Assembly (NCBI GenBank): GCA_902780495.1
Contig: CACZFM010000014.1
Coordinates: 1 to 54,888, forward strand
Direction of reading: 5' to 3'
Source of the DNA: an uncultured Bacteroidales bacterium
GTDB taxonomy: Bacteria > Bacteroidota > Bacteroidia > Bacteroidales > Paludibacteraceae
Length of the DNA stretch: 54,888 nt
In this document: positions 13,563-54,605 of the stretch, in pieces
Position numbering within the stretch: the stretch's first letter is position 1
Layout of the letters: the number at the start of each line of letters is the position of its first letter
Position numbers and translations under genes: made by a program
Notes under the pieces: model-generated
What the model was told of the DNA's origin: nothing
Database searches by the model: none
What the model saw: only the letters and a program-made list of their open reading frames with translations

Positions 13563-13606
13563 TATCGTCAGCTTATCGTCAGCTCATCCGCAGGTAAATC
13601 GCAAGT
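13563..13606 (+). repeat. 11-bp period array, degenerate
   Basis: Two identical units TATCGTCAGCT (13563-13573, 13574-13584) are followed by CATCCGCAGGT and the weaker AAATCGCAAGT. It lies between the dispersed repeat and the uvrC promoter. Confidence 0.6.
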
Positions 13607-13639
13607 AAGGTGATAAATCCACTTTCTGAAAGCAAAAAT

Positions 13640-13670
13640 TTGGATATATCAAAAAAATGTTGTATCTTTG
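13640..13670 (+). promoter_or_regulatory. Promoter of the uvrC operon
   Basis: TTG at 13640-13642, 20-base spacer, TATCTTTG at 13663-13670. Predicted start near 13677, giving an unusually long leader of about 180 bases that contains two 11-bp arrays before the uvrC start codon. Confidence 0.75.
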
Positions 13671-13695
13671 CGGCGAATTTTGCAAAAGTCCGCCG
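13671..13695. other. Inverted repeat at the predicted uvrC transcription start
   Basis: CGGCG (13671-13675) mirrors CGCCG (13691-13695), and inside it TTTT-GC-AAAA (13678-13687) is itself palindromic. It abuts the -7 box, so it could be an operator or a 5' hairpin in the mRNA. No regulator is identified. Confidence 0.4.
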
Positions 13696-13748
13696 AAGAC
13701 CTATAAAGAGGGTGTTATTCTTCCGCTGAAATCAGGGTGAGGTTGGCT

Positions 13749-13814
13749 TGAGCATACGATGAGCATACGATGAGCATACGATGAGCATACATTGAGCATA
13801 CATTGAGCATACAT
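13749..13814 (+). repeat. Six-unit 11-bp tandem array in the uvrC leader
   Basis: Three copies of TGAGCATACGA followed by three of TGAGCATACAT, 66 bases with no interruption. Units are identical within each half. Each unit contains TGA, so over the array's three-frame cycle no frame stays open; it is not coding. Confidence 0.92.
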
Positions 13815-13818
13815 TGAA

Positions 13819-13851
13819 AACAGCAGGCTAACAGCAGGCAAACCGCAGGCT
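13819..13851 (+). repeat. Three-unit 11-bp array just before the uvrC start
   Basis: AACAGCAGGCT, AACAGCAGGCA and AACCGCAGGCT run to within 4 bases of the GTG start at 13856. The unit differs from the array immediately upstream but the period is the same. Its G/C-rich core covers the ribosome-binding region. Confidence 0.85.
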
Positions 13852-13855
13852 AGAA

Positions 13856-15676
13856 GTGAAAAAACAAGATAATCATATTGCCCTATTACTGAAACGCATA
13901 CCGGAAAATCCGGGTGTGTATCAGTATTTTGACAAAGAAGGTCAGATTATCTACGTCGGTAAAGCGAAAAACCTGCATAGACGTGTTAATAGTTATTTCA
14001 ACAAAGATTATCAGTCGAGCAAGACAAGACAACTGGTGGCACATATAGCAGACATACGCTATGTGGTGGTGGACAGCGAGCAAGACGCTTTTCTGCTGGA
14101 AAACAACCTAATCAAACAATACCAACCCAAGTATAATATCCTGCTGAAAGACGGGAAGTCGTACCCAAGTATCTGCATCACACGCGAACCCTATCCGCGG
14201 ATATTCAAGACACGAACCATCAATAAAAAGATAGGCGAATACTACGGTCCGTATAGTTTTGGTAATACCGTGGAGACGGTGCTTGAACTGATACACAAAC
14301 TCTACCCTATCCGTACGTGTAACATACCACTTACGCCTGATTCCATCGGAAAAAAAAAGGTAAAGGTATGCCTAAAATATCACCTGAAGAACTGTTGCGG
14401 TATCTGCGAGAACCGACCGGGGAGCGAGCATTACCCCGAATGGATAGACCAAGCACGCAAACTGATTAAGGGTGATGCCCACGAGATAGGGCGACAACTG
14501 GAGGCAGAGATGCTGCAAAAAGCGGCAGAGACCAAGTATGAAGAAGCTGCATCCATCAAACGCAAAATTGAGCTATTGGAGCAGTTCAAGAGCAAGACAA
14601 TAATCACGAATTCATCGGCAAAAGACGCGGATGTGTTTGGTTATGACGAACAAAACGACCGAGTGTACATAAGTATGCTACACGTACACAACGGTTGTAT
14701 CGTGCGAGGTCAGACAATAGAATACCGCCGCAAGATGGAAGAGGAAAAAGAAGAGTTGCTGGCACTGGGTATGATGGAGCTGAGAGCGCGTTTAGAAAGT
14801 GACACAAAAGACGTGATTGTTCCGTTCATTCCAGAGGTTTTTGACGATACCCTGCATGTACACATTGCGTTAAGCGGAGACAAGAAGAAACTATTGGATC
14901 TGGCTATGCACAATGTGCAACAATACAAATTGGACCGATTGAAACAGGAAGACAAACTTAATCCGGAACAACGGAACGTTCGGATACTGACAGAACTGCA
15001 GCAATTGGTAGGATTGCCTACTCTCCCCCGATGGATAGACTGTTTCGACAACTCGAATATACAAGGCACCAACGCCGTGGCAGGATGCGTGGTGTACCGC
15101 ATGGGCAAGCCCAGCAAGAGCGACTACAAGAAATTTGAGATAAAGACCGTTGAAGGTGCAGATGACTACTCCAGTATGCGCGAAGTGGTACGGCGGCGGT
15201 ATCAGCACCTGATAGAAGAAGGCAAACCGATGCCCGACCTGATAATCGCAGACGGAGGCATCGGACAAATGCACGCCATCCGTGAGGCTGTGGAAGACCA
15301 ATTGGGTTTACATATCCCGATAGCCGGATTGAAGAAAAACGACAAACACAGGACACAGACTCTGCTATACGGATTCCCTCCGATGGAAATCAGTATGCCC
15401 GTGACGAGTGAAGTGTTCCGACTACTCGTTCAAATACAAGATGAAGTACACCGATTTGCCATCTCTTACCATAAAAAGCGTAGGAGTAAGAGCCTAAAAA
15501 GTAGTGAACTAGATGATATTCAGGGAGTTGGTGAGGTTGGAAAGCGTAAAATACTACAAGCCTTTCACTCTGTGGAACGTGTTAAACGCGCCGAATTGAT
15601 GGAACTACAAGAAAAGGTTGGAAAGCATTTAGGATCAGTTGTTTATGAGTATTTTCGGGGTAAAATATCGCGTTGA
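13856..15676 (+). CDS. uvrC: UvrABC excinuclease subunit C
   Basis: 606 residues, normal length. GIY-YIG nuclease domain at the N-terminus (GVYQYFDKEGQIIYVGKAKN), UVR domain around residues 200-240 (KYEEAASIKRKIELLEQF), RNase H-like endonuclease core with DCFDNSNIQGT and LIIADGGIGQ, and a C-terminal helix-hairpin-helix (LDDIQGVGEVGKRKIL). It makes both incisions in nucleotide-excision repair with UvrB. The GTG start is used because no ATG exists upstream in frame and the family begins with this helix (LKRIPENPGVYQ). First of an eight-gene run. Confidence 0.96.
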   Translation: MKKQDNHIALLLKRIPENPGVYQYFDKEGQIIYVGKAKNLHRRVNSYFNKDYQSSKTRQLVAHIADIRYVVVDSEQDAFLLENNLIKQYQPKYNILLKDGKSYPSICITREPYPRIFKTRTINKKIGEYYGPYSFGNTVETVLELIHKLYPIRTCNIPLTPDSIGKKKVKVCLKYHLKNCCGICENRPGSEHYPEWIDQARKLIKGDAHEIGRQLEAEMLQKAAETKYEEAASIKRKIELLEQFKSKTIITNSSAKDADVFGYDEQNDRVYISMLHVHNGCIVRGQTIEYRRKMEEEKEELLALGMMELRARLESDTKDVIVPFIPEVFDDTLHVHIALSGDKKKLLDLAMHNVQQYKLDRLKQEDKLNPEQRNVRILTELQQLVGLPTLPRWIDCFDNSNIQGTNAVAGCVVYRMGKPSKSDYKKFEIKTVEGADDYSSMREVVRRRYQHLIEEGKPMPDLIIADGGIGQMHAIREAVEDQLGLHIPIAGLKKNDKHRTQTLLYGFPPMEISMPVTSEVFRLLVQIQDEVHRFAISYHKKRRSKSLKSSELDDIQGVGEVGKRKILQAFHSVERVKRAELMELQEKVGKHLGSVVYEYFRGKISR

Positions 15677-15698
15677 GAATTGAATATTTTTGATAACG

Positions 15699-16148
15699 AT
15701 GGATAGATACACAATAAAACAAGACGAAAAAAACGGCATTCTTGTGCTAAACGACAAGGGTGAGTGTGTTTCCCCGAAAACAATCGTGGAACAAGTTGCG
15801 CCTCGCCGTGTGTTTGCCTTCGATGGCAGGATGGGTGCCGGTAAGACCACCTTCATCAAAAAACTCTGTGAAGACTTGGGAACGACAGACGTGGTGAACA
15901 GTCCGACATTTGCAATTGTGAATGTTTATGAGGTAGATGGTACGAAAGACGAAATCTATCATTTCGACTGCTATCGCTTAAAGGACCTGCGTGAGGCGGA
16001 AGACTTCGGGGCAGAGGACTATTTGTATTCCGGCAATATATGTTTCATCGAATGGCCGGATATCATCTCCCCTCTGCTGCCGGAAGATACGGTGCGGGTA
16101 AAAATACGGGTATTGGAAAACGGCGACAGAGAATTGACCATAGAATAA
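15699..16148 (+). CDS. tsaE: tRNA threonylcarbamoyladenosine biosynthesis ATPase TsaE
   Basis: 149 residues from the ATG at 15699; a TTG at 15690 would add three residues. The P-loop DGRMGAGKTTFIKKL (~45-60), the NSPTFAIVNVYE switch region and the HFDCYRLKD and FIEWPD motifs identify TsaE (YjeE). It drives the t6A37 tRNA modification with TsaB/TsaD. The ~40 residues before the P-loop are longer than in E. coli. 22 bases after uvrC. Confidence 0.93.
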   Translation: MDRYTIKQDEKNGILVLNDKGECVSPKTIVEQVAPRRVFAFDGRMGAGKTTFIKKLCEDLGTTDVVNSPTFAIVNVYEVDGTKDEIYHFDCYRLKDLREAEDFGAEDYLYSGNICFIEWPDIISPLLPEDTVRVKIRVLENGDRELTIE

Positions 16149-16174
16149 GAATGTAAGGCAAGGGAAAACAGATA

Positions 16175-16999
16175 GTGAAGCGACTGCGCGACATATTGAT
16201 TCTAACGATTATAGCGATGAACCTTTCCGCCATAGAGCACGAAGATATACTGAATCTCCGTTATGGCGGTGTGTGGCTGCAAGACCAATATCTCAGTCCC
16301 CTACTCTACACGGGAATGCAAGTCGGGATAGGTAACGAGTGGTGGCAAGTCTATAGTAAGCATCCCGGTTGGGCACATGTAGGGCGTGTGGATGCCAATT
16401 TCGGGTGGACGCACAATGCTCCGAAAAGCAATGTGATTTATGCTCTTGGGCTACAAGGCGGATGGGGTTCATATTATGCATGGGTGTTCGCGTTAGCCGG
16501 TAACGAAAGGACACCCAAACACAGTATAGAACTGCAGTTAGGGCCATACCTTGAGGCAGACTACATGGGCCGACTGATAGCCGGCTATATCAACAAGCCT
16601 TACTCTATGGATATGAGTATCCAAGTGGAGGCAATGGCAGGCATGAGTTACGCTTTCTCCGCCAAGAAAACGAGTTACCGGCTGCGGTACCTGGTACGCA
16701 CCAATATGATAGGCGTTGACTTTGTTCCCGACTACTGGCAATCCTACTATGAGTTACAAGAGAACGGGATAAACGGCACCGTACGTTGTGCAGGGCTGTG
16801 GAATCACCGCTATCTAAACCATGAACTGACGTTTGATATGCAATTCCCCCACTCCACATGGCGGGTGGGTATCCGGCATGAATACCTGGAATACGGGAAG
16901 GGTGACCTATGGTTCTCACGCGAACAAGTATCTGCCGTAGTGGGTACGTGCTTCCGTTACCGAGTAGACGGCAAAAGAAATCTATTGACAGAGCGATGA
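16175..16999 (+). CDS. DUF3316-like outer-membrane protein
   Basis: 274 residues. A GTG start opens a weak signal peptide (VKRLRDILILTIIAMNLSAI read as Met first). The body has many aromatic Gly-rich strands (YALGLQGGWGSYYAW, IELQLGPYLEADYMG, FRYRVDGK) as in a beta-barrel. LRYGGVWLQDQYLSPLLYTG resembles the opening of DUF3316 proteins of Bacteroidetes; that assignment is from memory of the pattern. The ATGA at 16996-16999 couples it to the S41 peptidase. Confidence 0.65.
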   Translation: MKRLRDILILTIIAMNLSAIEHEDILNLRYGGVWLQDQYLSPLLYTGMQVGIGNEWWQVYSKHPGWAHVGRVDANFGWTHNAPKSNVIYALGLQGGWGSYYAWVFALAGNERTPKHSIELQLGPYLEADYMGRLIAGYINKPYSMDMSIQVEAMAGMSYAFSAKKTSYRLRYLVRTNMIGVDFVPDYWQSYYELQENGINGTVRCAGLWNHRYLNHELTFDMQFPHSTWRVGIRHEYLEYGKGDLWFSREQVSAVVGTCFRYRVDGKRNLLTER

Positions 17000-18003
17000 A
17001 ACACTGGATACTTGCCATATTGACCCTCTGCGTTACAACAGGATGCACCCATCCTTTCGGAAACGTGTATGACAACACTCCTGCGGGAAACATGGAGGCG
17101 CTGTGGAGCATTATTGACGAGAAATACTGCTTTCTGGACGAGAAAGATGTAGATTGGGAAGCACTAAAACAACCGTATATCGATAGTGCCAAACTGTTAG
17201 CGCCCGGTGACAAACTCGCCTTGTTTGACTTAATGGAACGGATGATTAACCGCTTGGAAGACGGACATGTGAATCTATATACCAGTTTCGACCGTTCACA
17301 GTGCGTGTCTTGGTACAAAGGCTATCCGGAAAACTACGACGAACGCCTAATTAACGAACTATATATCAACAACAGCCGATATGCCGGCGGCATGTACTAC
17401 CAGCGCATTGCGGATGATGCAATAGGGTATATCTACTGCGGGTCATTTGAGATTGGTGCAAGTTCCGCCAATATGTATTACATTTTGACCGCGTTCCGCG
17501 ATTGCAAAGGCATTGTGCTGGATGTGCGTAACAATGGTGGTGGCAGTTTAGAGTATGCCTATACGCTGGCATCCACATTCTTTGACCATGACACTACTAT
17601 CGGTTACTGGCAGCATAAGACCGGTAAACGGCACAGCGATTTCTCCGAACTCAAGCCCATAAAGATAAAGAAAGATGACATGCCCAGCAAGTGGTTGCGC
17701 CCCGTGATTGTCCTTCAGAACAGACATACCTACTCTGCCGCCAACTCGTTTGTCAATGCCATGCGATATGGCAGGAACGTACTGCTGTTAGGAGGTATGA
17801 GCGGTGGCGGAGGTGGCATGCCGTTAAGTTATGAACTGCCCAACGGATGGCTCATCCGCTTTTCCAGTATCCGAATGTATGATGCCGACCACAAGTCCAT
17901 AGAGGGCGGTATTGCCCCTCATGTATATGAAACTTTGCGCAGCACAGACAAGGATGACCTGATAGAACATGCCGTGCAACTAATCAACAAAGCCTATGAA
18001 TAA
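16996..18003 (+). CDS. S41 family peptidase lipoprotein
   Basis: 335 residues from the ATG at 16996, chosen because it overlaps the preceding stop and opens a lipoprotein signal (MKHWILAILTLCVTTGC, Cys 17). C-terminal-processing-protease core: IGYIYCGSF, LDVRNNGGGSLEYA (oxyanion/substrate strand) and TYSAANSFVNAM containing the candidate nucleophile Ser, followed by GGMSGGGGGMP. No PDZ domain is evident between signal and core. Probably acts in the periplasm on envelope proteins. Overlaps lolD by 8 bases. Confidence 0.85.
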   Translation: MKHWILAILTLCVTTGCTHPFGNVYDNTPAGNMEALWSIIDEKYCFLDEKDVDWEALKQPYIDSAKLLAPGDKLALFDLMERMINRLEDGHVNLYTSFDRSQCVSWYKGYPENYDERLINELYINNSRYAGGMYYQRIADDAIGYIYCGSFEIGASSANMYYILTAFRDCKGIVLDVRNNGGGSLEYAYTLASTFFDHDTTIGYWQHKTGKRHSDFSELKPIKIKKDDMPSKWLRPVIVLQNRHTYSAANSFVNAMRYGRNVLLLGGMSGGGGGMPLSYELPNGWLIRFSSIRMYDADHKSIEGGIAPHVYETLRSTDKDDLIEHAVQLINKAYE

Positions 18004-18661
18004 CATTAGTATAGAAGTACGTGATATCCACAAACGCTTCGGCACATTGGAAGTGCTGAAAGGAGTAAATCTGGAGGTTAGAAAAGGTGAGATTCTGGCA
18101 TTAGTGGGGAAAAGCGGTGCCGGCAAGACCACATTACTCCAAATAATCGGGACTTTGGACCGTCCTGACCAAGGGAGTGTGCTGATAGACGGTGAGGATG
18201 TGTTTGCTTTCAATGACAAACAGATGGCGGCATTCCGCAACCAGAAAATCGGTTTTATTTTCCAATTCCACCAATTGCTTCCTGAATTTACTGCGATAGA
18301 GAATGTGATGATGCCGGCATTGATAGCAGGATGGAGCAAAGACAAGGCTGCTGCCCGTGCGAAAGACTTGCTGGAAAGTCTGGCGATGGGAACCCATCTG
18401 GAACACAAACCCATGCAAATGAGTGGGGGAGAGCAACAACGCGTGGCAGCTGCGCGTGCCCTAATGATGTCTCCCAAGGTGATTCTTGCCGATGAACCGA
18501 GTGGGAGTCTGGACGAAGCGAACAAGAAAGAGTTACATAAACTGCTGCTTCAATTGCGGGATACGTATGGTCAAACCATCATTATCGTAACACATGACAA
18601 AGAATTGGCCGAAATATCCGACCGAGTGGTGGAAATAAAGGACGGCAAAATCGTGGAGTAA
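17996..18661 (+). CDS. lolD: Lipoprotein-releasing-type ABC transporter ATP-binding protein
   Basis: 221 residues. Walker A GKSGAGKT (38-45), Q-loop FQFHQLLPEF, signature MSGGEQQR, Walker B VILADEPSG and H-loop VTHD are all intact. The Q-loop sequence and overall size are those of LolD/MacB-class ATPases that drive lipoprotein release from the inner membrane. No LolC/E permease is next to it, so the partner is elsewhere. It starts inside the peptidase gene and is followed by the lipoprotein GldB. Confidence 0.88.
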   Translation: MNNISIEVRDIHKRFGTLEVLKGVNLEVRKGEILALVGKSGAGKTTLLQIIGTLDRPDQGSVLIDGEDVFAFNDKQMAAFRNQKIGFIFQFHQLLPEFTAIENVMMPALIAGWSKDKAAARAKDLLESLAMGTHLEHKPMQMSGGEQQRVAAARALMMSPKVILADEPSGSLDEANKKELHKLLLQLRDTYGQTIIIVTHDKELAEISDRVVEIKDGKIVE

Positions 18662-18682
18662 ACCTAATATATCCGGAAAGCC

Positions 18683-19684
18683 ATGAAAAAGACTTCTATT
18701 TTATTTCTTGCTATAGCACTTTGGGGTTGCCAATCCTCCCGCACCTTTTTTCCCCGCCATCTGCCGGAAGAAGAGGTGAAAATTGTCCGCTTCGACAATG
18801 CAATCATCGGAGTCAGGAGCGATTCGGTGATGGCTGATATCCGTTCGTTATATCGTGATTTTCCCGACTTTATGCCCTATTTTGTGGAAAACATACTGGG
18901 CATCCCGTCCGCAGATACCGCTTATCTTGCAGAAGCACTGCCTAAGTTTCTGAATGACACTATCTACGGCTTCAAGTCCACCAATATGCGCGAACAGGAA
19001 TTGCTGAAAGATGTCAGTTCCATCGAAAAAGACTTGTCCGGCGCCTTTGCCCGTGCTAAATACCTATATCCGGAATGGGAGATTCCACAAGTAACCCTTT
19101 TCGTATCCGGTTTTAATGCTTCGGTACTGTTTGTGGGCAACGATTTTGCCGTAGGCGGAGACATGTATCTTGGTAGCGATTACGAATACTACAACCGAGT
19201 GGTGAACGACTATCAGAAAACGACTATGCGCCCCGAATGTATCGCGGAGGATGTGGTCAGCGCGTGGCTGTTCCGCAACATTCCCTATACGAGCAGCAAG
19301 AACCGGTTGCTGGAGAATATGCTTTACCGCGGCAAAATCATGTACCTGCTTTCCCAATTGTTCCCCGACACCGCCCCATGGGAAACAATGGGGTACACTA
19401 AAGCCCAATGGGACTGGTGCGTGCAATACGAAAAGGCTATATGGAACAGGATGATGGATCAAAAAGACCTATTCAAAGCCGAACAGCGTGTGATGAATTC
19501 GTATTTGAATGACGGTCCGTTTACTTCGGAAATCTCTCAAGATTCGCCCGGTAGACTCGGCACGTGGGTAGGGTGGAGGATTGTAGAAAGTTATATGAAC
19601 CACCATGAAGAAGTAAGTTTGCAGGCACTAATGGAAAACGGTGATGCCCAGCGGATTTTGGAAGAAAGTTACTACAGACCATAG
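18683..19684 (+). CDS. gldB: Gliding-motility lipoprotein GldB homologue
   Basis: 333 residues. Lipoprotein signal MKKTSILFLAIALWGC (Cys 16). The mature part has the features of GldB: RFDNAIIGVRSDSVMADIRSL near the start, a long helical middle, FNASVLFVGNDFAVGGDMYLG and GRLGTWVGWRIVESYM near the end, reminiscent of zinc-peptidase-like DUF2268 proteins. In Flavobacterium GldB is needed for gliding; in non-gliding Bacteroidales its role is unclear but may relate to envelope or type IX function. 21 bases after lolD. Confidence 0.82.
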   Translation: MKKTSILFLAIALWGCQSSRTFFPRHLPEEEVKIVRFDNAIIGVRSDSVMADIRSLYRDFPDFMPYFVENILGIPSADTAYLAEALPKFLNDTIYGFKSTNMREQELLKDVSSIEKDLSGAFARAKYLYPEWEIPQVTLFVSGFNASVLFVGNDFAVGGDMYLGSDYEYYNRVVNDYQKTTMRPECIAEDVVSAWLFRNIPYTSSKNRLLENMLYRGKIMYLLSQLFPDTAPWETMGYTKAQWDWCVQYEKAIWNRMMDQKDLFKAEQRVMNSYLNDGPFTSEISQDSPGRLGTWVGWRIVESYMNHHEEVSLQALMENGDAQRILEESYYRP

Positions 19685-19697
19685 AAAGCACAATGAT

Positions 19698-20912: not shown

Positions 20913-21850
20913 AACGATTGAGAGTGCTTTTGCTTGCCGTTCTGTCGGTGTTGCCATTGGTTGCACAGGCGGAAACGTCCTTGTTCCGCGTAATCAGTTA
21001 TAACGTAGAGAACTTTTTTGACCCTGCACGCGATTCCCTTAAGCGAGACCAAGATTTTACTCCTGAAGGGAAATTCCATTGGACTATTTCCCACATGCAC
21101 CGCAAAGCCGAACAGATTGCCAAGGTGATTGCCTGTGCGGGCGGATGGGGCACTCCGGCATTGGTGGGACTATGCGAAGTGGAGAACAGGCATTGTATGA
21201 ACGTGCTGTGCGAGAAACTAAAGTCATATCCTTACCATATTTTGCATTTTGAAAGCCCAGACGAACGTGGTATAGACGTGGCGCTACTGTATGATCCTTA
21301 TCAGTTTAAGCTAATAGATTCCGCTGCTATCTCTGTTCCTTTAGGCGAAGACAAGACACGTGACATCCTATATGCGCAAGGTGTGACGCGAACGAAAGAT
21401 ACACTGCATGTGTTTATGGTTCATCTGCCGTCCATGGCAGGAGGTGCCAAAACCTCAGAATGGAAACGTCAGGCAGGAAAAGACCGGATACGACACAAAA
21501 CCGACAGTATTCTTGCGCGCCACCCACAAGCGCAAATTATCGTCATGGGGGACATGAATTGTTCCGCGCAGGATGATATAGCAGGCTTGCATAATAAGAT
21601 GCTTAAAATGGAGAAAAAGGGGCTTGGAACTGAGAAATATCATGGGGTGTGGGCTTGTTTGGATCAAATTTACCTTTCAGATGCCTTAAATGAGGTGAGC
21701 GAAGTGCAGATTTTTGCCCCTTTGTGGCTTCAAGAACGAGATGAGCGGTATGCGGGACTCAAACCTAAACGGACATATATCGGGTACAAATACCAGCGGA
21801 ACGGGTACAGCGACCATTTGCCCGTGGTATTGGATATTCGGCACAATTGA
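20909..21850 (+). CDS. Secreted endonuclease/exonuclease/phosphatase family protein
   Basis: 313 residues. Signal peptide MKRLRVLLLAVLSVLPLVAQA. EEP-fold motifs: ISYNVENFFDP (Asn), VGLCEVEN (metal Glu), VHLPS, VMGDMNCSAQD (Asp-x-Asn) and YSDHLPVVLD (Asp-His). All catalytic positions look present, so it should be an active phosphodiesterase or nuclease in the periplasm or outside. Substrate unknown (DNA, lipid or phosphate ester). Start overlaps the sufS stop by 4 bases; last gene of the uvrC run. Confidence 0.88.
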   Translation: MKRLRVLLLAVLSVLPLVAQAETSLFRVISYNVENFFDPARDSLKRDQDFTPEGKFHWTISHMHRKAEQIAKVIACAGGWGTPALVGLCEVENRHCMNVLCEKLKSYPYHILHFESPDERGIDVALLYDPYQFKLIDSAAISVPLGEDKTRDILYAQGVTRTKDTLHVFMVHLPSMAGGAKTSEWKRQAGKDRIRHKTDSILARHPQAQIIVMGDMNCSAQDDIAGLHNKMLKMEKKGLGTEKYHGVWACLDQIYLSDALNEVSEVQIFAPLWLQERDERYAGLKPKRTYIGYKYQRNGYSDHLPVVLDIRHN

Positions 21851-21864
21851 CCGATAAAGGTCGC

Positions 21865-22007
21865 TATATCTATCGTATATCTATCGTATATCTAACGTAT
21901 ATCTATCGTATATCTATCGTATATCTATCGTATATCTAACGTATATCTATCGTGTATCTATCGTGTATCTATCGTGTATCTATCGTATATCTATCGTATA
22001 TCTATCG
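21865..22007 (+). repeat. Thirteen-unit 11-bp tandem array
   Basis: 143 bases of exactly 13 units: TATATCTATCG (A), TATATCTAACG (B) and TGTATCTATCG (C), in the order A A B A A A B A C C C A A. It fills the space between the convergent EEP gene and the minus-strand gene ending at 22053. The reverse complement of the same three unit types makes up the array at 54473. Confidence 0.96.
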
Positions 22008-22052
22008 TGTTTAACCCGAGAATTGTCCGAGAAAAGCAGGTATATAATTCCC

Positions 22053-22775
22053 CTAAAAAGCGAGTGCCAAGCCTAATTGATTGGGTGCAATAGACCAACG
22101 CAACTGTACGGCTGCCTTGTCAAATCGGGAATTATAAAGATCAATCGCCTTATTGTATTTTGCGGGTGCGCACAAAACCATCCCCAGCCCCACTCCAGCA
22201 GAGACCAGTGCCCCACATGCCAACCCAACACCCGCATCCCGGGTTCCTGTGACCATAGCAACACTCCCTCCTGTGGCCAAGCCTGCACCTATTATAACGA
22301 ACACAGAACCACCTACCACCAGGCTTTTCCCTTTTTGCCATTGTGCATAGGCGATAGAATCCTCGCGCTGAAGAATCCTCTCCACCTCTTTGGAAGATAT
22401 ATAGGTTTCATCACACAGATAGTGTCCGTTGTCCCGATAAATACGCCCCCGTAAAGCCATTGGCGCAGGTTTAGCATTCTCCACCGGCGTCACAGGCAAA
22501 GCAACCGGTGTAGTGTCCGACTTTACGGTCACAGAAGATTGATTGTAGAGTACGACTTTCCCATTGGAATAGATGACTGAACTAATCTCCGAAGTGGCCA
22601 TCACGAAGAGAGGCCCTTCCAAATTGTCCCATTCTTTGTACTTGATTTCCGCCTTTGACACTTCCATAATTTTCGCTTCAATCTTTTGCGCGTCAGAAGT
22701 AATAATAATGTCCTGCGCGAAAGTCAGCAATGCCATCATCGTCGTGCAGATACAGCAAAAAAGTCTCTGTTTCAT
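22053..22775 (-). CDS. Envelope protein with N-terminal beta domain and Gly-rich transmembrane hairpin
   Basis: 240 residues from the ATG at 22775; ATGs at 22787 and 22808 are less likely because the promoter's -7 box covers 22806-22813. Signal peptide MKQRLFCCICTTMMALLTFA, then a ~60-residue domain (DIIITSDAQKIEAKIMEV, IKYKEWDNLEGP, ISSVIYSNGKV) that occurs in many Bacteroidetes secreted proteins. After a helical linker come two Gly/Ala-rich hydrophobic segments (SLVVGGSVFVIIGAGLATGG and a similar one after it). No function recognised. Confidence 0.7.
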   Translation of the reverse strand: MKQRLFCCICTTMMALLTFAQDIIITSDAQKIEAKIMEVSKAEIKYKEWDNLEGPLFVMATSEISSVIYSNGKVVLYNQSSVTVKSDTTPVALPVTPVENAKPAPMALRGRIYRDNGHYLCDETYISSKEVERILQREDSIAYAQWQKGKSLVVGGSVFVIIGAGLATGGSVAMVTGTRDAGVGLACGALVSAGVGLGMVLCAPAKYNKAIDLYNSRFDKAAVQLRWSIAPNQLGLALAF

Positions 22776-22805
22776 ATTCTTATCCATTATGTCGGTTTGC
22801 GAGCA

Positions 22806-22836
22806 CAAAGATACAGCTTTCGGCGATAGTAGCCAA
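22806..22836 (-). promoter_or_regulatory. Promoter of the 22053-22775 gene
   Basis: Minus-strand TTG (22834-22836), 20-base spacer, TATCTTTG (22806-22813). This separates the gene from the operon upstream of it and places transcription start near 22799. Confidence 0.75.
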
Positions 22837-22875
22837 AAGTTCGATTTCGATTATCGAAGTTATCGAAAAATGTTA

Positions 22876-23520: not shown

Positions 23521-23542
23521 ATAACGCCCCTGTAAGACTTGT

Positions 23543-24283: not shown

Positions 24284-24298
24284 ATGGCGAGTAACTGA

Positions 24299-27643: not shown

Positions 27644-27674
27644 CAAAGGTACTGCTTTTTTTTGAATTGTGCAA
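27644..27674 (-). promoter_or_regulatory. Promoter of the yhcH-glgB-nagB-ddpX operon
   Basis: Minus-strand TTG (27672-27674), 20-base A-rich spacer ending GCAG, TACCTTTG (27644-27651). Predicted start about 25 bases before the ATG at 27612. Confidence 0.8.
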
Positions 27675-27747
27675 ATATTTTGTACATAAATCTACATTTT
27701 TTATATGGATGTATTAGGTGGAAGTTTGCTTGACGTTGGCTGAATAT

Positions 27748-27802
27748 CCTAATAATAACCTAATAATAACCCAATAATCACCCAATAAAGTCCTATTATT
27801 CA
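27748..27802 (+). repeat. Five-unit 11-bp array
   Basis: CCTAATAATAA twice, then CCCAATAATCA, CCCAATAAAGT and CCTATTATTCA. Located upstream of the yhcH promoter and downstream of lolA, in a 318-base gene-free gap (27613-27930) that is otherwise only promoter and the next array. Confidence 0.8.
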
Positions 27803-27827
27803 TTCGAGAATAAGAGAGAGAGGGAAA

Positions 27828-27893
27828 GGGAATAGAAAGGGTGAAAAAGGGGTATGGAATGGGTATACAATGGATATAGAAGGGAGATGGATT
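27828..27893 (+). repeat. Six-unit degenerate 11-bp array, GG-phased
   Basis: Every unit begins with GG: GGGAATAGAAA, GGGTGAAAAAG, GGGTATGGAAT, GGGTATACAAT, GGATATAGAAG and GGAGATGGATT. Sequence has drifted more than in the other arrays but the 11-base phase is kept. It ends 37 bases from the lolA stop. Confidence 0.7.
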
Positions 27894-31634: not shown

Positions 31635-31642
31635 CACGAGAG

Positions 31643-31675
31643 GATGACGGGACGGATACGGGACGATAACGAGAC
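31643..31675 (+). repeat. Three-unit 11-bp array inside the rnf operon
   Basis: GATGACGGGAC, GGATACGGGAC and GATAACGAGAC, fading into GATAAAAAATT. It starts 8 bases after the rseC stop and is transcribed with the operon. Confidence 0.7.
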
Positions 31676-31711
31676 GATAAAAAATTAACAAAATAAAAAA
31701 CATAAGAGTTT

Positions 31712-48427: not shown

Positions 48428-48442
48428 TAAAACCTCAACTAT

Positions 48443-49201: not shown

Positions 49202-50028
49202 AAAGGACAACAGGACTTGGGCGCGGTCTGGATGCGCTGATTGATACACATGTTATTACCGATGGTTCATCTTCTATCAACGAGGTGGACATTACGCAAA
49301 TTTATGCCAACCCTGACCAACCGCGTCATTCTTTTGACGAGGAGGCTTTGCAGGAACTGAGCGATTCCATTCGTGAACACGGTGTTATTTCTCCTATCAC
49401 GTTGCGCAAAAACGAGGATGGAACCTATATGATTATTGCCGGTGAACGTCGTTTCCGCGCTTCCAAAATGGCGGGACTCACTTCCATTCCCGCATACATC
49501 CGAACGGCTAAAGACGAGGAAGTGCGCGAGTGGGCTCTCATTGAAAACATACAACGCGAAGATTTGGATGCCATCGAAATAGCTCTTGCGTACCAACGTT
49601 TGATGGAGGACTATGAAATGACGCAGGAAAAGATGGCGGAGCGCGTGGGTAAAAAGCGTACCACCGTGGCCAACTATCTGCGCCTGCTCAAACTGCCTGC
49701 CGAAATTCAGATGGGCATTAAGGAGAAAAAGATTGACATGGGTCATGCTCGTGCTATTCTTGGTAGTCCTTCCACCGAACAGCAACTCGCGCTCTACAAA
49801 CGTATCTTGTCCGATGGTCTTAGTGTGCGTCGGGTGGAACAATTGGTGGCAGACAATAATCTGGATAAGAAACGCCAGAAAAGTTCCGCAGATGCAGGAA
49901 CCTACCGCGACAAAGAGACCGCAGTGGCCGCTTGTCTTAATACAAAGGTTAAGATTACAGGCAATCGCTTGATTATCTCCTTCACCTCTCTTGAACAATT
50001 GGATCAAATAGTATCTCACATCCATTGA
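49198..50028 (+). CDS. parB: Chromosome-partitioning protein ParB (Spo0J)
   Basis: 276 residues. N-terminal CTP-binding/ParB-N domain with INPDQPRHSF-like IYANPDQPRHSF and the box II GERRFRASKMAG, helix-turn-helix MTQEKMAERVGKKRTTVANYL (~142-162) that reads parS, and a C-terminal dimerisation part with ITGNRLIISF. Binds the parS site found at 11177. Stop overlaps the DUF5683 start (TTGA). Confidence 0.97.
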   Translation: MKRTTGLGRGLDALIDTHVITDGSSSINEVDITQIYANPDQPRHSFDEEALQELSDSIREHGVISPITLRKNEDGTYMIIAGERRFRASKMAGLTSIPAYIRTAKDEEVREWALIENIQREDLDAIEIALAYQRLMEDYEMTQEKMAERVGKKRTTVANYLRLLKLPAEIQMGIKEKKIDMGHARAILGSPSTEQQLALYKRILSDGLSVRRVEQLVADNNLDKKRQKSSADAGTYRDKETAVAACLNTKVKITGNRLIISFTSLEQLDQIVSHIH

Positions 50029-50720
50029 GAAAAATCATCCTGATATTATCCCTGTTCGCAGTGCTTGCTTTGCAGGCACAAGAGCTGCTTCACTCCACAC
50101 CCGCCGATTCCATCGCGCCGGATACCATCACCATCCTCTCTGGTGTAAATGATATCTATGCCTTGGGAGACACGGTACAACGGCCGTCTGATAGCCTGCT
50201 GCGGCTGCAACCGTGGCGACCTGATCCTATTCGGGCTACGTGGCTGGCGGTTATAGTACCCGGATTGGGGCAAATCTACAACCGGAGTTATTGGAAACTG
50301 CCCCTTGTTTATGGGGCATTCATGGGGTGTATCTATGCCATCACTTGGAACAATTCCCAGTATCAGGATTATCGTCAGGCCTATCGGGATATATTGGTGG
50401 CAGATGAGTTGTCCGCCGATCCGTCTGTCTCCTATAACGCCATTCTGCCGAAAGGATATACTATTGAAACAATGGGTGGACGTGAGCAATATACTGCTAC
50501 TCTGAATAGCAAACAGAACCTCTATCGGCGTTATAGGGATATATCCATTGCTGCCACGGCAATTGTGTATATACTCTCCATCATCGATGCGTATGTAGAT
50601 GCTCAGTTGTTCGACTTTGATATATCCACTGACCTTTCGCTCAATGTCAGCCCCGAGATTTATTATGACCCGCGGTTGCAGCAACGGAACGCGGGGGTTC
50701 ATTTGGCATTCACTTTCTAA
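50025..50720 (+). CDS. DUF5683 membrane protein
   Basis: 231 residues with a TTG start overlapping the parB stop. Signal/TM at the N-terminus (MRKIILILSLFAVLALQA). The DUF5683 core is RATWLAVIVPGLGQIYNRSYWKLPLVYGAFMG (split here by words only for length: ATWLAVIVPGLGQ then IYNRSYWKLP), then AYRDILVAD and a transmembrane segment near residue 175-190. Function unknown; conserved neighbour of parAB in Bacteroidetes. Confidence 0.9.
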   Translation: MRKIILILSLFAVLALQAQELLHSTPADSIAPDTITILSGVNDIYALGDTVQRPSDSLLRLQPWRPDPIRATWLAVIVPGLGQIYNRSYWKLPLVYGAFMGCIYAITWNNSQYQDYRQAYRDILVADELSADPSVSYNAILPKGYTIETMGGREQYTATLNSKQNLYRRYRDISIAATAIVYILSIIDAYVDAQLFDFDISTDLSLNVSPEIYYDPRLQQRNAGVHLAFTF

Positions 50721-50735
50721 TCTTGTTTATATACC

Positions 50736-52019
50736 ATGCTTTTCCTGCTTTGTCTATTAAATCTTGTTTTTCAACCTGTCGAACCACAGCCCGCAGACAC
50801 CATGCATATTGATTTCCCGATGGTGAAAGTGGACTCTATCATCGCCAATGAAAACGACCCGATTGACACTCTCGCACAGGCTTTGCAGGATTCTCTGGCG
50901 CAGGATCTCTTTTTCGACCAACAACTGGCGTGGGTGGACAGCAGTAGTTGTACGTCCGACACCATCATTCTCTCTTTCCCTGACTCTGTTTACAAGGCGC
51001 GGTTACAGGCGCTTCCTTTTGTGATAGAAGTGCCTTACAATCCCATCGTAGGAGGGTATATCAACCGTTATATTCAGCATTCTGCCCGTGTGGCAGGATT
51101 GGCGCGGAAGTCCGAGTACTATTTCCCACTCTTTGAGGATGCACTGGCACGCTACGATCTTCCGTATGAACTCTGCTACCTTGCTGTTATTGAATCAGCG
51201 CTCAATCCGTCTGTCCGCTCACATGCAGGGGCTGCCGGCTTATGGCAGTTCATGCCTTCCACTGGCAAATTGTATGGACTGGAAATCAATTCATTGGTGG
51301 ATGAGCGGTTGGATCCCATACGGGCTACGGATGCTGCCTGTCGTTTCTTGAAGGCGCTTTATAACACCTTCGGTGATTGGAACCTCGCTATTGCGGCGTA
51401 TAACTGTGGACCCGGCAATATCAACAAGGCGATCCACCGTTCCGGTAAGCGCGATTTCTGGAGCATTTATCCCTATCTTCCGCGGGAAACGCGGTCTTAC
51501 CTGCCTCTCTTCATCGCGGCTTCCTATGTGCTCAATTATGCCGATACACACGGTATATGTCCTGCAGAAGTGGATCGGACTATGCGTAGCGACACCATCC
51601 TTACGCACCGCCGCTTGCACCTCAAGCAAGTCAGCGACATGTTGGGAGTGCCTTTGGATGAACTGCGAAGGCTGAATCCGCAATATACGCGGGACATCAT
51701 CCCTGGTGGAGAAAAAGAATACGCGCTCTGCCTGCCAATCGAACTGTCGGGACAGTATATCGATCGGGAAGAATCCATCCTTGTTTATCAGGCGGATTCG
51801 CTTATCAACAACCGTCGTGCCGAGATTGAATTGCTTCACAAGTCCGGCCTCAATGGCTCTTACACGCATGGAGGGGTCACCTACTACCAGATTAAGAGTG
51901 GTGACAGTCTCAGTGCCATCGCCAAGCGTTTCCATGTCTCTGTCAAACAATTACGCAAGTGGAACAATCTCAAAAACGACAATATCAGGGCAGGCAAGAA
52001 ACTGCGCATAGGAGGCTGA
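50736..52019 (+). CDS. LysM lytic transglycosylase (MltD-like)
   Basis: 427 residues. Short signal (MLLFLLCLLNLVFQ-like start), an acidic linker, then the SLT domain: catalytic Glu153 in VIESALNP, GAAGLWQFMPSTGKLYGL and AIAAYNCGPGNINKAI. One degenerate LysM-like stretch (~285-340, VSDMLGVPLDELRRLNPQY) and one good C-terminal LysM (IKSGDSLSAIAKRFHVSVKQ). It cleaves peptidoglycan glycan strands to anhydro-muropeptides. 15 bases after DUF5683, 4 bases before the MerR gene. Confidence 0.93.
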   Translation: MLFLLCLLNLVFQPVEPQPADTMHIDFPMVKVDSIIANENDPIDTLAQALQDSLAQDLFFDQQLAWVDSSSCTSDTIILSFPDSVYKARLQALPFVIEVPYNPIVGGYINRYIQHSARVAGLARKSEYYFPLFEDALARYDLPYELCYLAVIESALNPSVRSHAGAAGLWQFMPSTGKLYGLEINSLVDERLDPIRATDAACRFLKALYNTFGDWNLAIAAYNCGPGNINKAIHRSGKRDFWSIYPYLPRETRSYLPLFIAASYVLNYADTHGICPAEVDRTMRSDTILTHRRLHLKQVSDMLGVPLDELRRLNPQYTRDIIPGGEKEYALCLPIELSGQYIDREESILVYQADSLINNRRAEIELLHKSGLNGSYTHGGVTYYQIKSGDSLSAIAKRFHVSVKQLRKWNNLKNDNIRAGKKLRIGG

Positions 52020-52023
52020 CACG

Positions 52024-52350
52024 ATGGAGGAGGTGAAAAAAGTATATTATTCCATGAAGGAGGTATCGGCCGACACTGGTCTGCCCGCTTCCACGTTGCG
52101 CTTTTGGGAAAAACAGTTCAGCGACTTGTCGCCGCGGAAAGATGCACATGGAAATCGATACTATTCGGAACAGGACATTGCTCTCCTTAAACGCATTCAA
52201 TATATCCGTGATGAACTGAAAATCACGCGGATAGAAGCCATAAAAGCCGCTTTGGAAAATCGTGTGGACGACACGGATTGCCGCCCGCGTGTTTATGAAA
52301 TCTTGCAGCGTGTCCGCCAAACCTTGGTGGATATACGCGCCTACTTGTAA
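52024..52350 (+). CDS. MerR-family transcriptional regulator
   Basis: 108 residues. Winged-helix MerR DNA-binding part: YYSMKEVSADTGLPASTLRFWEKQF (read as YSMKEVSADTGLP and STLRFWEKQF) and GNRYYSEQDIALLKRIQYI; the C-terminal ~35 residues form a short dimerisation helix without a recognised sensor domain or Cys cluster. Target unknown; a common neighbour of this transglycosylase in Bacteroidetes. Ten bases before the TonB receptor. Confidence 0.9.
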   Translation: MEEVKKVYYSMKEVSADTGLPASTLRFWEKQFSDLSPRKDAHGNRYYSEQDIALLKRIQYIRDELKITRIEAIKAALENRVDDTDCRPRVYEILQRVRQTLVDIRAYL

Positions 52351-52360
52351 ATGGGAATCT

Positions 52361-54388
52361 ATGAATCGCTCTTTTTTACATCAACCCACCTTGCGTTTCC
52401 GCCGCTTCACCCGAAAGGCTTACGCGGCCTTCTGTTCCATCCATCGGCATGTCACTATTGGACGCGTCTCGCGTGCCATCTGCGACCGCGAACTGCTGAA
52501 GTCGGGTGGGGCACTCGTTTGCTGCCTGTTGATGGGCGCAGGAGGCATTGCTTTGGCGGATGATACATCGGATGTCTTGACCGGTAATGCACTGCCGGAT
52601 TCCCTCTCCCTGACGCTTCAGGAAGTACAAGTTGTTTCGCAGCAGACCGAGGTGCACCGGCAGGCCTGTCGGCTGGTCTCGCGTTTTTCCATCAAAGATA
52701 TGCAGGCTGTGCCTGCGCTTACGGTTTCCGACTACCTTGCGTATGTGCCGGGGCTGGATGTGCGCTCACGCGGTGCCAACGGTTCCCAGACAGATATCTC
52801 CATGCGGGGAGGTACGTTCGACCAAGTGCAACTCCTCATCAATGGCATCAGCCTCAGCGATGCACAGACAGGTCACTACCAGTTCAATCTTCCTCTCTCT
52901 TCCGGTCTTATCGAACGTATTGAGCTTTTGCAAGGCGGCAGTGTGGGCTTGAGCGGAGCGTTCTCCGGCGCGGTGAATATCATCACCCGCCAAACTGACT
53001 CTATGCAGCACACAATCCGTTTCACGGCTGGCTATAACCAACTCCTTTCGCCCGAATGGGCAGGGATGTGGCGGACAGGTGACTGGCGCTTGGCGGCTTC
53101 GGCTTCTTACACGCGCAGCGAAGGGTATTACGCACCCGCTCCTTCCGACAAAGAGAAAACGGCACTTGACAACAGCGGGCATCAGTCCGCCAATCTCTAT
53201 TTCCATGCCGCTTACCGTGGATTGGAACTGCAGGCGGGTGCGCAGTATAAGGATGCCGGACTGGGCATGGGCTACGGATTTGGCTCACAGGACCAGTTCG
53301 ATGCCACCCGCACGGGCTTTCTCTCTGCCACTTACCGACACACCTGGAACCGCTTCTCGATGGATGCCAAGGCGGCTCTGCGGGTCAATCACGACCGCTA
53401 CGAGTGGCATCGGGGCACGGTCAGCAACCGCCATCTCACCCATAACGCCACTTTGGCGGCGGCGGGGCATTATATCTCATCCCTCGGAACAACCACACTG
53501 GGAATCGAATGCCGCAACGAAAATCTGCGTTCCACCAATCTACGGGACACGAATCGAATCAATATCCATTACTATGCAGAGCAGACTTTCCACCGCGCCG
53601 GATGGTCGCTTTCGCTGGGACTGGCGGGCAATTACAACACCTTCTTTGGGCATAACATATCCGGCAACGCCGATATCCGTTATCGCTTCCGCCGCGGAGG
53701 AGCCCTCTTCGTACATGCCGACCGTGCGGTGCGAATGCCCACATTTACAGATCTTTACTACAATGCCGGTAATCAGCTCGGCAATCCTGACCTGAAGGCA
53801 GAAAAGGCGTGGACCCTCTCTCTTGGCGGTGATTATCGGCATTCGTGGCAGCAGGCGGGCACGCTGTCGCTCATGGCAGATACATGGTTCAGATGGGGAA
53901 AGGATATCATCGACTGGGTCTATGTCCCTGATGACACCAAACGACCGTACCATGCGGCCAATCAGCAGAGAGTCAATTCATTAGGGTTCGAGTTCAACGC
54001 CACGTACTCTCTCAATCGGTGGCTGCGGACGATACGGGTGGACTATGGCTTTACGCATCTCTTCCTCAATTTGCAAGAGGCGCAGTCGCGATACCTTGAC
54101 TATCTCAGCCACAAACTGATTGTACGGCTGGAGCATGGCATCTACCGCGGTCTCGGAGCCTCTTGGATTGTGCGTTACGAGCAGCGCGAGGGGCAGTATA
54201 ACGATGCAGACGGGCAAGTCTGCAACTATCGCCCTGTCGTCTTGTTGGATGGCGAAATCTATTGGCAGTTCTCACTTGTTCGGCTCGCACTCGCAGCCTC
54301 TAATCTCACCAATACCCGTTATTACTCCTACGGCGGCACCCTGCAACCCGGCATTTGGCCGCGTTGCTCCATCCAAGTCACATTCTAG
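52361..54388 (+). CDS. TonB-dependent receptor with extended signal sequence
   Basis: 675 residues from the ATG at 52361 (an in-frame ATG at 52262 lies inside the MerR gene). A ~48-residue basic leader (RRFTRKAYAAFCSIHRHVTI and RVSRAICDRELLKSGG) precedes the hydrophobic signal core (ALVCCLLMGAGGIALA, ~51-66). Plug domain with SDYLAYVPGLDVRSRG, DISMRGGTFDQVQLLING and ERIELLQGGS; barrel ends in a typical C-terminal Phe strand (CSIQVTF). Short for a TonB receptor, nearest in size to BtuB/siderophore types. Substrate unknown. Confidence 0.92.
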   Translation: MNRSFLHQPTLRFRRFTRKAYAAFCSIHRHVTIGRVSRAICDRELLKSGGALVCCLLMGAGGIALADDTSDVLTGNALPDSLSLTLQEVQVVSQQTEVHRQACRLVSRFSIKDMQAVPALTVSDYLAYVPGLDVRSRGANGSQTDISMRGGTFDQVQLLINGISLSDAQTGHYQFNLPLSSGLIERIELLQGGSVGLSGAFSGAVNIITRQTDSMQHTIRFTAGYNQLLSPEWAGMWRTGDWRLAASASYTRSEGYYAPAPSDKEKTALDNSGHQSANLYFHAAYRGLELQAGAQYKDAGLGMGYGFGSQDQFDATRTGFLSATYRHTWNRFSMDAKAALRVNHDRYEWHRGTVSNRHLTHNATLAAAGHYISSLGTTTLGIECRNENLRSTNLRDTNRINIHYYAEQTFHRAGWSLSLGLAGNYNTFFGHNISGNADIRYRFRRGGALFVHADRAVRMPTFTDLYYNAGNQLGNPDLKAEKAWTLSLGGDYRHSWQQAGTLSLMADTWFRWGKDIIDWVYVPDDTKRPYHAANQQRVNSLGFEFNATYSLNRWLRTIRVDYGFTHLFLNLQEAQSRYLDYLSHKLIVRLEHGIYRGLGASWIVRYEQREGQYNDADGQVCNYRPVVLLDGEIYWQFSLVRLALAASNLTNTRYYSYGGTLQPGIWPRCSIQVTF

Positions 54389-54472
54389 TATCATCCGACT
54401 TGCGTTCGGACTCCTTTGGGATGTTTTTCTTTTAGATATCCCTTCATTTCCAGTCAATTCTCAGGTTAAACA

Positions 54473-54571
54473 CGATAGATACACGATAGATACACGATAG
54501 ATACACGATAGATATACGATAGATACACGATAGATATACGTTAGATATACGATAGATATACGTTAGATAAT
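54473..54571 (-). repeat. Nine-unit 11-bp array, inverted relative of 21865-22007
   Basis: Units CGATAGATACA, CGATAGATATA and CGTTAGATATA are the exact reverse complements of types C, A and B at 21865. In plus-strand order: C C C A C A B A B, the last unit ending in AAT instead of ATA. Confidence 0.95.
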
Positions 54572-54605
54572 AGGGACGCTATCGGGCCGTTACCGGGTCG
54601 CAAGG
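54572..54605 (+). repeat. Drifted 11-bp run with GGG phase
   Basis: GGG triplets at 54573, 54584 and 54595 are spaced exactly 11 bases in a CG-richer context, directly continuing the phase of the array before it. Shorter and less certain than the main arrays. Confidence 0.45.

What the first reader, a model, noticed from the sequence alone, without database searches (positions are those of the whole stretch)
13563..54605. Intergenic tandem arrays of unrelated sequence but one shared period of 11 bp
At least eight separate loci (13563, 13749, 13819, 21865, 27748, 27828, 31643, 54473; also the doubled 11-mers at 365 and 13500 and the GGG-phased run at 54573) are built from units of exactly 11 bases. 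Unit sequences differ between most loci (TGAGCATACGA, AACAGCAGGCT, TATATCTATCG, CCTAATAATAA, GATAACGAGAC and others), and copy numbers range from 2 to 13. All lie between genes; none interrupts a gene. Eleven bases is near one helical turn, so protein sites would face the same side of the DNA. Either a lineage-specific mechanism makes 11-base duplications, or the phase is selected for nucleoid/terminator function. I know of no named element with a fixed period and free sequence.
Basis: partly seen in the sequence, partly recalled or inferred. Interest (0 to 1): 0.85.

Follow-up and report, generated by a model that had tools for sequence, protein, structure and literature searches.

The report
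Free-sequence repeats locked at eleven bases
In a genus of mostly ruminant-gut bacteria the DNA between genes carries many short tandem repeats whose sequences mostly differ from place to place but whose unit is 11 bases, about one turn of the double helix, likely because a duplication process in this lineage works in 11-base steps.

Summary
In 989 kb of the window's own genome (a 2.03 Mb draft, 29 contigs), 87 of 151 intergenic tandem repeats have period 11, against 5 of 71 in genes; in the less biased set B, 27 of 55 and 1 of 24. Shuffled gaps give 0.16. Period-11 arrays per 100 kb of intergenic DNA: 71-81 here, 88 in a sister genome, 35 in the genus, 14 in other genera of the family, 7 in other families. 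Correction: the two longest window arrays are one family, TATCTATCGTR, on opposite strands, with at least 20 copies in this genome, almost confined to the genus. 94 TRF rows fall into 27 unit clusters; six hold 68. Apart from TATCTATCGTR, congener units resemble ours no more than chance. New: dispersed families are strand-polar to flanking genes (36 of 36 rows in five families). Curvature, a universal motif, gap-type preference and promoter phasing were tested and not supported. Best reading: duplication in 11-base steps, purged from genes by frameshift, some units copied around in one direction. Chief rival: docking arrays for a head-to-tail DNA-binding protein; a CarH-like candidate is encoded in the window.

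The parts
21865..22008 (+). family F1 array, TATCTATCGTR x13, between the convergent genes 20924-21850 (+) and 22053-22739 (-); flanked in register by ACCGATAAAGG (left) and CCGAGAATTGT (right)
   Evidence: TRF; family, flanks and strand; copies in the genome
54470..54569 (-). family F1 array, same unit on the minus strand, x9, 82 bp after the TonB-dependent receptor gene
   Evidence: TRF; family; distance
54570..54607 (-). degenerate end units of the F1 element (phased GGG run), same 11-base register
   Evidence: sequence; register read by eye from the flanks
27743..27788 (-). family F2 array, gene-sense unit YTATTATTRGG x4, upstream of a predicted promoter (27644-27674, minus) of the YhcH/YjgK/YiaL-type gene
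   Evidence: TRF; family; promoter; Pfam
27824..27881 (-). degenerate 11-bp array, consensus GAATGGGTATA on the + strand
   Evidence: TRF (70% matches)
13495..13519 (+). F5-like doublet CTCCCTTACCA / CTCCGTTACCA, part of a dispersed piece also present at 360-392
360..392 (+). second copy of that dispersed piece
   Evidence: sequence, by eye
13563..13588 (+). family F3 array, gene-sense unit RGCTTATCGTC, x2.4
13749..13812 (+). TGAGCATACGA x6, in the predicted uvrC leader
   Evidence: TRF; promoter at 13640-13670
13819..13852 (+). AACAGCAGGCT x3, ending 3 bp before the uvrC GTG start
   Evidence: TRF; ORF; uvrC
31636..31680 (+). imperfect ACGAGACGATA array in the 77 bp between an RseC-type gene and an rnfB-type gene
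   Evidence: TRF (11% indels); Pfam; NCBIfam
439..467 (+). A-rich 11-bp array CAAAAAAAATG; a dispersed family of 8 TRF rows in the sample
   Evidence: TRF; cluster
52024..52350 (+). 108-aa MerR-family protein, the only PF13411 match at E 0.001 or better in the genome, DNA-binding domain nearest that of CarH; speculative candidate binder

Best explanation
These are intergenic tandem arrays with a fixed 11-base unit and mostly free sequence, likely seeded by a lineage-specific duplication process (replication slippage) that works in 11-base steps whatever the local sequence. Shown: the period, the free sequence, the near absence from genes, the concentration in one genus, and length differences between two sister genomes of whole 11-base units in four of the five arrays that differ. 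Inferred: that the step is mutational; that frameshift selection clears arrays from genes (11 is not a multiple of 3); and that a few units (F1, F2, F5 and others) were then copied between gaps as strand-polar pieces, perhaps together with promoter-side DNA, which would give their constant direction relative to genes. The enzyme that sets the step of 11 is unknown.
For: Sharp period peak in gaps only: 87 of 151 intergenic and 5 of 71 coding repeats in 51 stretches of the own genome; 27 of 55 and 1 of 24 in set B. 94 TRF rows fall in 27 unit clusters, 17 of them singletons. Of 38 clusters in congeners 4 (F1 among them) resemble one of ours, 2.95 expected from shuffled letters, so outside F1 the sequence is not kept while the period is. 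Sister genome G077: 7 intergenic arrays of G000 lie in aligned blocks, all 7 have a counterpart, 5 differ in length, 4 of these by exactly 11, 11, 22 or 33 bases; 7 of the 8 intergenic indels over 10 bases are multiples of 11, and 0 of 17 coding indels are. No motif common to the units at large, no excess curvature, no preference for gap type: arrays in 6 of 25 convergent, 45 of 245 tandem and 10 of 59 divergent gaps. Isolated exact two-copy duplications in own gaps peak weakly at 11 (5, against 2 at 9, 1 each at 10 and 12, 0 at 13). Published precedent with 7 bases: polymerase contact length was proposed as the cause of heptamer predominance (PMC4679880 introduction).
Against: Strand polarity of the dispersed families (36 of 36 rows in five families, F3 4 of 5) does not follow from slippage and needs a second step. 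In 8 other congener pairs, 0 of 40 intergenic indels outside arrays were 11 bases (3,304 bp), so a bias in unique DNA is not shown; in G000 against G077 two of the five 11-base indels lay, by eye, outside arrays. Whole-unit length change is expected of any tandem array. Arrays are better conserved between G000 and G077 (492 of 516 sites) than other intergenic DNA (7,640 of 8,473), as selection or homogenisation would give. F1 keeps one unit in 12 of 24 congeners examined. Several isolated doublets belong to recurring units.
Confidence: 0.42

Rival explanations
1. The arrays are docking sites for a DNA-binding protein that assembles head to tail, one protomer per helical turn, and acts directionally near promoters, as CarH and BldC do.
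For: CarH binds tandem 11-bp direct repeats nnnnTnnACAn (PMC9304148, passages); BldC coats direct repeats of varying number (PMC5859096, passages). The only PF13411 match found in the genome is a 108-aa protein in this window; its best solved-structure hits are 3whp (named only a probable transcriptional regulator) and 5c8d, CarH (E about 1e-7). F1, F3, F4 and the end units of F1 share T-N3-C-G, by eye, F4 on the other strand; AT-N3-CG is in 6 of 27 own unit clusters against 2.0 expected (p 0.02). Strand polarity; a co-oriented promoter match within 400 bp downstream of 15 of 19 F1 arrays here, one of them judged chance, and within 300 bp of 32 of 81 in congeners, against 5 co-oriented upstream, 12 anti-oriented upstream and 3 anti-oriented downstream; lag-11 autocorrelation strongest 90 to 400 bp upstream of promoters, weaker in leaders; better conservation than other gap DNA.
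Against: Unit sequences too diverse for one protein: T-N3-C-G is in 10 of 27 clusters against 6.5 expected (p 0.07) and 9 of 40 against 7.7 in congeners (p 0.34); AT-N3-CG is 5 of 40 against 3.1 in congeners (p 0.19); the CarH core T-N2-ACA is 0 of 27, and 7 of 40 against 4.4 in congeners (p 0.13). Array-to-promoter phase seen in 29 own arrays (p about 0.002 at 11, eight periods and three sets tried; F1 and F2 alone not significant at 11) did not replicate in 27 F1 arrays of congeners (p 0.31). Convergent gaps carry arrays as often as others. Neighbouring genes look mixed by eye, not a regulon. The protein scores far below the NCBIfam CarH cut-off (38.8 against 400 bits) and has 737 relatives at E 0.001 or better, many only 56-60% identical.
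Confidence: 0.3
2. F1 and the other families are mobile minisatellite elements (MITE-like) that insert in gaps, and the period is a by-product of one ancestral 11-base array.
For: At least 20 F1 copies. Most of the 16 printed have similar end units of about 17-20 bp with mostly unique DNA beyond; end units look alike within a species and different between species (by eye).
Against: No terminal inverted repeat or target duplication was noticed on reading the flanks (not searched for systematically). No empty site found: all 7 aligned G000 arrays have a counterpart in the sister genome; the one site followed up had different neighbouring genes. Does not explain 17 singleton units.
Confidence: 0.12
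3. Transcription boundary: the arrays give spaced YC sites for Rho, ending read-through or antisense transcripts.
For: F5 is C-rich in sense and starts within 14 bp of the upstream stop codon in four of six cases; F1 and F2 have about one or more YC per unit on the antisense strand and almost none in sense.
Against: C/G skew does not follow distance from the stop codon (Spearman -0.19, p 0.15; 12 arrays near a stop against 48 others, p 0.44). Arrays are also found in divergent gaps. Flexible RNA would not need exactly 11.
Confidence: 0.08
4. Intrinsic curvature: any 11-base repeat bends supercoiled DNA in one plane, and bent DNA near promoters is selected.
For: A sequence period close to 11 bp concentrated in intergenic DNA is reported for E. 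coli (PMC516772, title and abstract start only).
Against: Units are not more curved than their own shuffles: mean percentile 0.48 and 0.51 over 27 clusters; F1, F2 and F5 lie at or below 0.24 in both models (model parameters recalled).
Confidence: 0.04

Closest known systems
Heptanucleotide tandem repeats of bacteria: STRR of cyanobacteria (what they are is recalled; the term was only seen in a search listing) and LSSR as summarised in PMC4679880 (introduction read)
   Same: one preferred unit length across many sequences, scattered in phylogeny; polymerase-contact slippage proposed
   Different: 7 bases, not 11; here the dispersed families are also strand-polar to genes. This genome also has weaker 7/14/21 classes.
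TAACTGA direct repeats of Beggiatoaceae, some Cyanobacteria and Bacteroidetes (PMC4679880, abstract and passages read)
   Same: 169 mostly intergenic sets, mostly one orientation to the downstream start codon, indels mostly in 7-nt steps between two strains
   Different: one heptamer sequence, most just before start codons; here unit 11, many sequences, mostly upstream of promoters
CarH operators (PMC9304148, passages read)
   Same: tandem 11-bp direct repeats at promoters
   Different: three or four repeats with a fixed core at carotenoid genes; here up to 16 copies, dozens of loci, no common core
BldC-family sites (PMC5859096, passages read)
   Same: head-to-tail binding to direct repeats of variable number
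   Different: consensus AATTnnnn(C); no protein shown to bind here
About 11-bp sequence periodicity of bacteria (PMC516772, PMC4132750; search listing and abstract starts only)
   Same: period near 11, in E. coli concentrated in intergenic DNA
   Different: a dinucleotide bias there, tandem copies here; units not curved
BrickBuilt minisatellite/MITE of Porphyromonas gingivalis (PMC4596501, search listing only; the name and its 23-bp unit are recalled)
   Same: tandem array within a dispersed element in a Bacteroidales genome
   Different: a single element family; here many units

Membership tests
Lineage-specific fixed-length tandem repeats (STRR/LSSR kind) | one unit length dominates over neighbouring lengths | tested here: met
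   11: 87, 10: 5, 12: 3 intergenic
Lineage-specific fixed-length tandem repeats (STRR/LSSR kind) | many unrelated unit sequences | tested here: met
   27 clusters here, 38 in congeners, 4 shared against 2.95 expected; but six clusters hold 68 of 94 rows
Lineage-specific fixed-length tandem repeats (STRR/LSSR kind) | unit of 7 bases (STRR) | tested here: not met
   main peak at 11; 7 is a minor class
Lineage-specific fixed-length tandem repeats (STRR/LSSR kind) | copy number changes by whole units between relatives | tested here: met
   4 of 5 length differences are 11, 11, 22, 33; one measured as 20
CarH-type operator | 11-bp spacing of direct repeats | tested here: met
CarH-type operator | core TnnACA in each repeat | tested here: not met
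   0 of 27 own unit clusters; 7 of 40 in congeners against 4.4 expected
CarH-type operator | bound by a MerR-family protein | not testable with these tools
   a CarH-like DNA-binding domain is encoded; binding unknown
MITE / mobile minisatellite | terminal inverted repeats and target duplications | not tested
   flanks were read but not searched systematically; no empty site found in 7 aligned arrays
Curved-DNA element | units more curved than shuffles | tested here: not met
   mean percentile 0.48 and 0.51 over 27 clusters

The most novel reading that the evidence does not exclude
A bacterial genus has an 11-base duplication clock: intergenic DNA grows and shrinks by one helical turn at a time regardless of sequence, and arrays so born are adopted as directional docking rails for a CarH-like protein beside genes.
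Probability: 0.2. Interest if true: 0.85.

Novelty: new variant of a known kind. Interest (0 to 1): 0.6.

Why it matters
A fixed repeat length with free sequence points to a physical ruler: either a replication or repair enzyme that slips by one helical turn, or a protein that reads spacing rather than bases. Here the ruler is concentrated in one genus and can be tested by comparing its polymerases and small DNA-binding proteins with those of neighbouring genera that have few such arrays. The arrays also lie near contig ends in this draft genome, so they may be places where short-read assemblies of these bacteria break.

Tried and rejected
Replication polarity: F1 occurs in both orientations on C9, C12 and C14, the contigs on which more than one F1 array was found, so direction follows local genes rather than a replichore. 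Orthologous uvrC gap: not comparable; in 29 of 29 congener loci no period-11 or -22 TRF array lies in the 480 bp upstream, and in the five printed uvrC closely follows other coding-looking sequence, by eye. Curvature, Rho skew, promoter phase and a universal motif: see rivals. The promoter-like match inside 20924-21850 (minus strand) lacks the A-run of this genome's promoters and is taken as chance. Rfam and tRNA: nothing in the window. Masked autocorrelation: after removal of TRF arrays of score 30 or more the lag-11 signal is weak (0.286 against 0.279 and 0.280 at lags 10 and 12), so there is little hidden periodicity beyond the arrays. In one search the column meant to leave out F1, F3 and F4 did not (still 27 clusters), so it is not used. 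Clusters were built in different order and differ slightly in membership.
Full report
OBSERVATION. All ten window arrays with a score of 40 or more are intergenic. The sequence in rows of 11 and the flanks show that 21865-22008 and 54470-54569 have the same unit, TATCTATCGTR, on opposite strands.

GENOME-WIDE PERIOD. The window is contig 14 of a 2.03 Mb, 29-contig genome, 97% complete. In set B (20 stretches, 380 kb, three of them placed to hold F1 arrays on C20, C24 and C25) period 11 makes up 27 of 55 intergenic and 1 of 24 coding repeats. In all 51 stretches (989 kb, including set A, chosen mostly around F1 arrays, partly chosen from hits) it is 87 of 151 and 5 of 71. The sister genome G077 (20 stretches) gives 19 of 27 and 3 of 11, twenty other congeners (one stretch each) 14 of 52 and 1 of 40, twenty genomes of other genera of the family 7 of 28 and 0 of 27, and 19 stretches from 16 genomes of other families of the order 2 of 18 and 1 of 20. 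Per 100 kb of intergenic DNA that is 71 (set B) to 81 (all), 88, 35, 14 and 7. Dinucleotide shuffles of 120 set B gaps give 0.16 rows of period 11 on average, at most 1, against 22 real rows. Autocorrelation in gaps has local peaks at lags 11, 22 and 33, with nothing at 11 or 22 in genes and only a faint rise at 33, a multiple of three. A second, weaker class at 7, 14 and 21 is also visible.

FAMILIES. 94 intergenic TRF rows (a few overlap) fall into 27 clusters at two mismatches or fewer; six clusters hold 68. F1 (TATCTATCGTR) has at least 20 arrays in the genome (my count, which scored 40 of 161 candidates). Most of the 16 F1 arrays printed have end units in the same 11-base register (about YCCGANAATKG on both sides), alike within a species and different between species by eye. 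F1 with up to 3 mismatches over 31 bases is in 12 of 24 congeners besides G000 and in 0 of 16 genomes of other families. In a family-wide draw of 120 genomes, 5 match at 2 mismatches or fewer: G000, two of seven other congeners, and two of 112 genomes of other genera with one or two two-mismatch hits each; the reversed-pattern control rings in one genome. F2 is YTATTATTRGG, F3 RGCTTATCGTC, F4 GGACCGATGAT, F5 ASCATACCCTT, written in gene-sense direction. Outside F1, congeners have other units: 4 of 38 congener clusters (F1 is one) lie within two mismatches of one of ours, 2.95 expected from shuffled letters.

POLARITY. In tandem gaps the dispersed families point one way relative to the genes: F1 10 of 10, F2 11 of 11, F5 6 of 6, the A-rich family 6 of 6 (two of these rows overlap), F4 3 of 3, F3 4 of 5; the TGAGCATACGA cluster is 2 and 2. 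With a free choice of direction for each of the first five families, 36 of 36 is far from chance if the loci are independent, which copying would weaken. In 80 of the 106 species-collection loci (some of them from G077), 81 F1 arrays show 40 tandem in the same sense, 11 opposite, 14 divergent, 4 convergent, 1 inside a gene call and 11 at locus edges. A promoter match (TTG-N18-23-TAnnTTTG) in the same direction lies within 400 bp downstream of 15 of 19 F1 arrays here, one of them judged chance, and within 300 bp of 32 of those 81, against 5 co-oriented upstream, 12 anti-oriented upstream and 3 anti-oriented downstream. Both orientations occur on one contig, so this is not replication polarity. 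Arrays are not concentrated in one gap type: 6 of 25 convergent, 45 of 245 tandem, 10 of 59 divergent gaps of 60 bp or more.

EVOLUTION. Between G000 and G077 (aligned: 8,989 intergenic and 114,553 coding bp), 8 of 65 intergenic indels are longer than 10 bases and 7 of these are 11, 22 or 33; 0 of 17 coding indels are multiples of 11. Seven intergenic G000 arrays lie in aligned blocks; all have a G077 counterpart, five differ in length, four by whole units and one by 20 bases as aligned; G000 is the longer in all five, so collapse in the G077 assembly is possible. One short G077 doublet has no G000 array call. Array sites are 95.3% identical, other intergenic sites 90.2%. In eight other congener pairs (3,304 intergenic bp) 2 of 7 indels in arrays and 0 of 40 outside were 11 bases. 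One G077 contig joins the left flank of one F1 array with the right flank of another 22 kb away in G000, and another joins flanks from two G000 contigs near an array: recombination between arrays, or assembly error. Four of the 20 F1 arrays lie within about 400 bp of a contig end (places; contig lengths and the window), so copy numbers are provisional.

MECHANISM. Tests for a reason to select the period were mostly negative: no excess curvature (parameters recalled), no motif common to the units at large (AT-N3-CG is in excess in own clusters, p 0.02, not in congeners), no promoter phase in congeners (own-genome p of about 0.002, with several periods and sets tried), no Rho-like skew trend. 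What remains is a sequence-blind 11-base step, with frameshift selection emptying genes, and later copying of some units in one direction. This is inference; the enzyme is unknown and a bias outside arrays is not shown. The chief rival is a head-to-tail DNA-binding protein. CarH binds 11-bp direct repeats (PMC9304148, passages), BldC coats repeats of varying number (PMC5859096, passages), and the genome's only PF13411 match, a 108-aa protein at 52024-52350, has CarH (5c8d) and 3whp as its best solved-structure hits. Against it, it scores far below the NCBIfam CarH cut-off, its relatives number 737 at E 0.001 or better, and own units lack the CarH core. PF12728 gave one match below its cut-off elsewhere. 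The draft genome may also miss other MerR genes.

NOVELTY. Fixed-length repeats with many sequences are known for 7 bases (PMC4679880, introduction). I found no paper on an 11-base class or on these arrays in Paludibacteraceae in the listings, which cover open-licence papers only and show 8 to 15 papers each. I therefore rate it a new variant of a known kind.

Noticed in passing
window 52024-52350: The only PF13411 (MerR_1) match found in the genome is this 108-aa protein with a CarH-like DNA-binding domain, one gene away from an F1 array; chance closeness cannot be excluded.
   Followed up: partly
own genome sample, 179 promoter matches and 310 gaps: Promoters share a long consensus, AAATATTTGCATATTTCAAAAAAAAGTAGTACCTTTGCAGCC, and 170 of 310 gaps form one BLAST-linked group: gap DNA looks like a mosaic of dispersed modules.
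   Followed up: partly
L121 against L040 and L041; L143 against L035 and L038: F1 arrays sit at junctions where the sister genome joins flanks that are apart in G000; rearrangement or misassembly.
   Followed up: partly
own gaps, set B: A weaker second class of periods 7, 14 and 21 in the same gaps.
   Followed up: no
window 13385-13855: uvrC has its own predicted promoter and leader here; in the five congener loci printed it closely follows other coding-looking sequence, so an operon may have been broken in this lineage.
   Followed up: partly
upstream of F2 arrays, e.g. L047, L175 and L039: A dispersed hairpin-like module CGCTCGCGAACGCGAG beside CAATAAACCGCG-type repeats, possibly terminators.
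   Followed up: no
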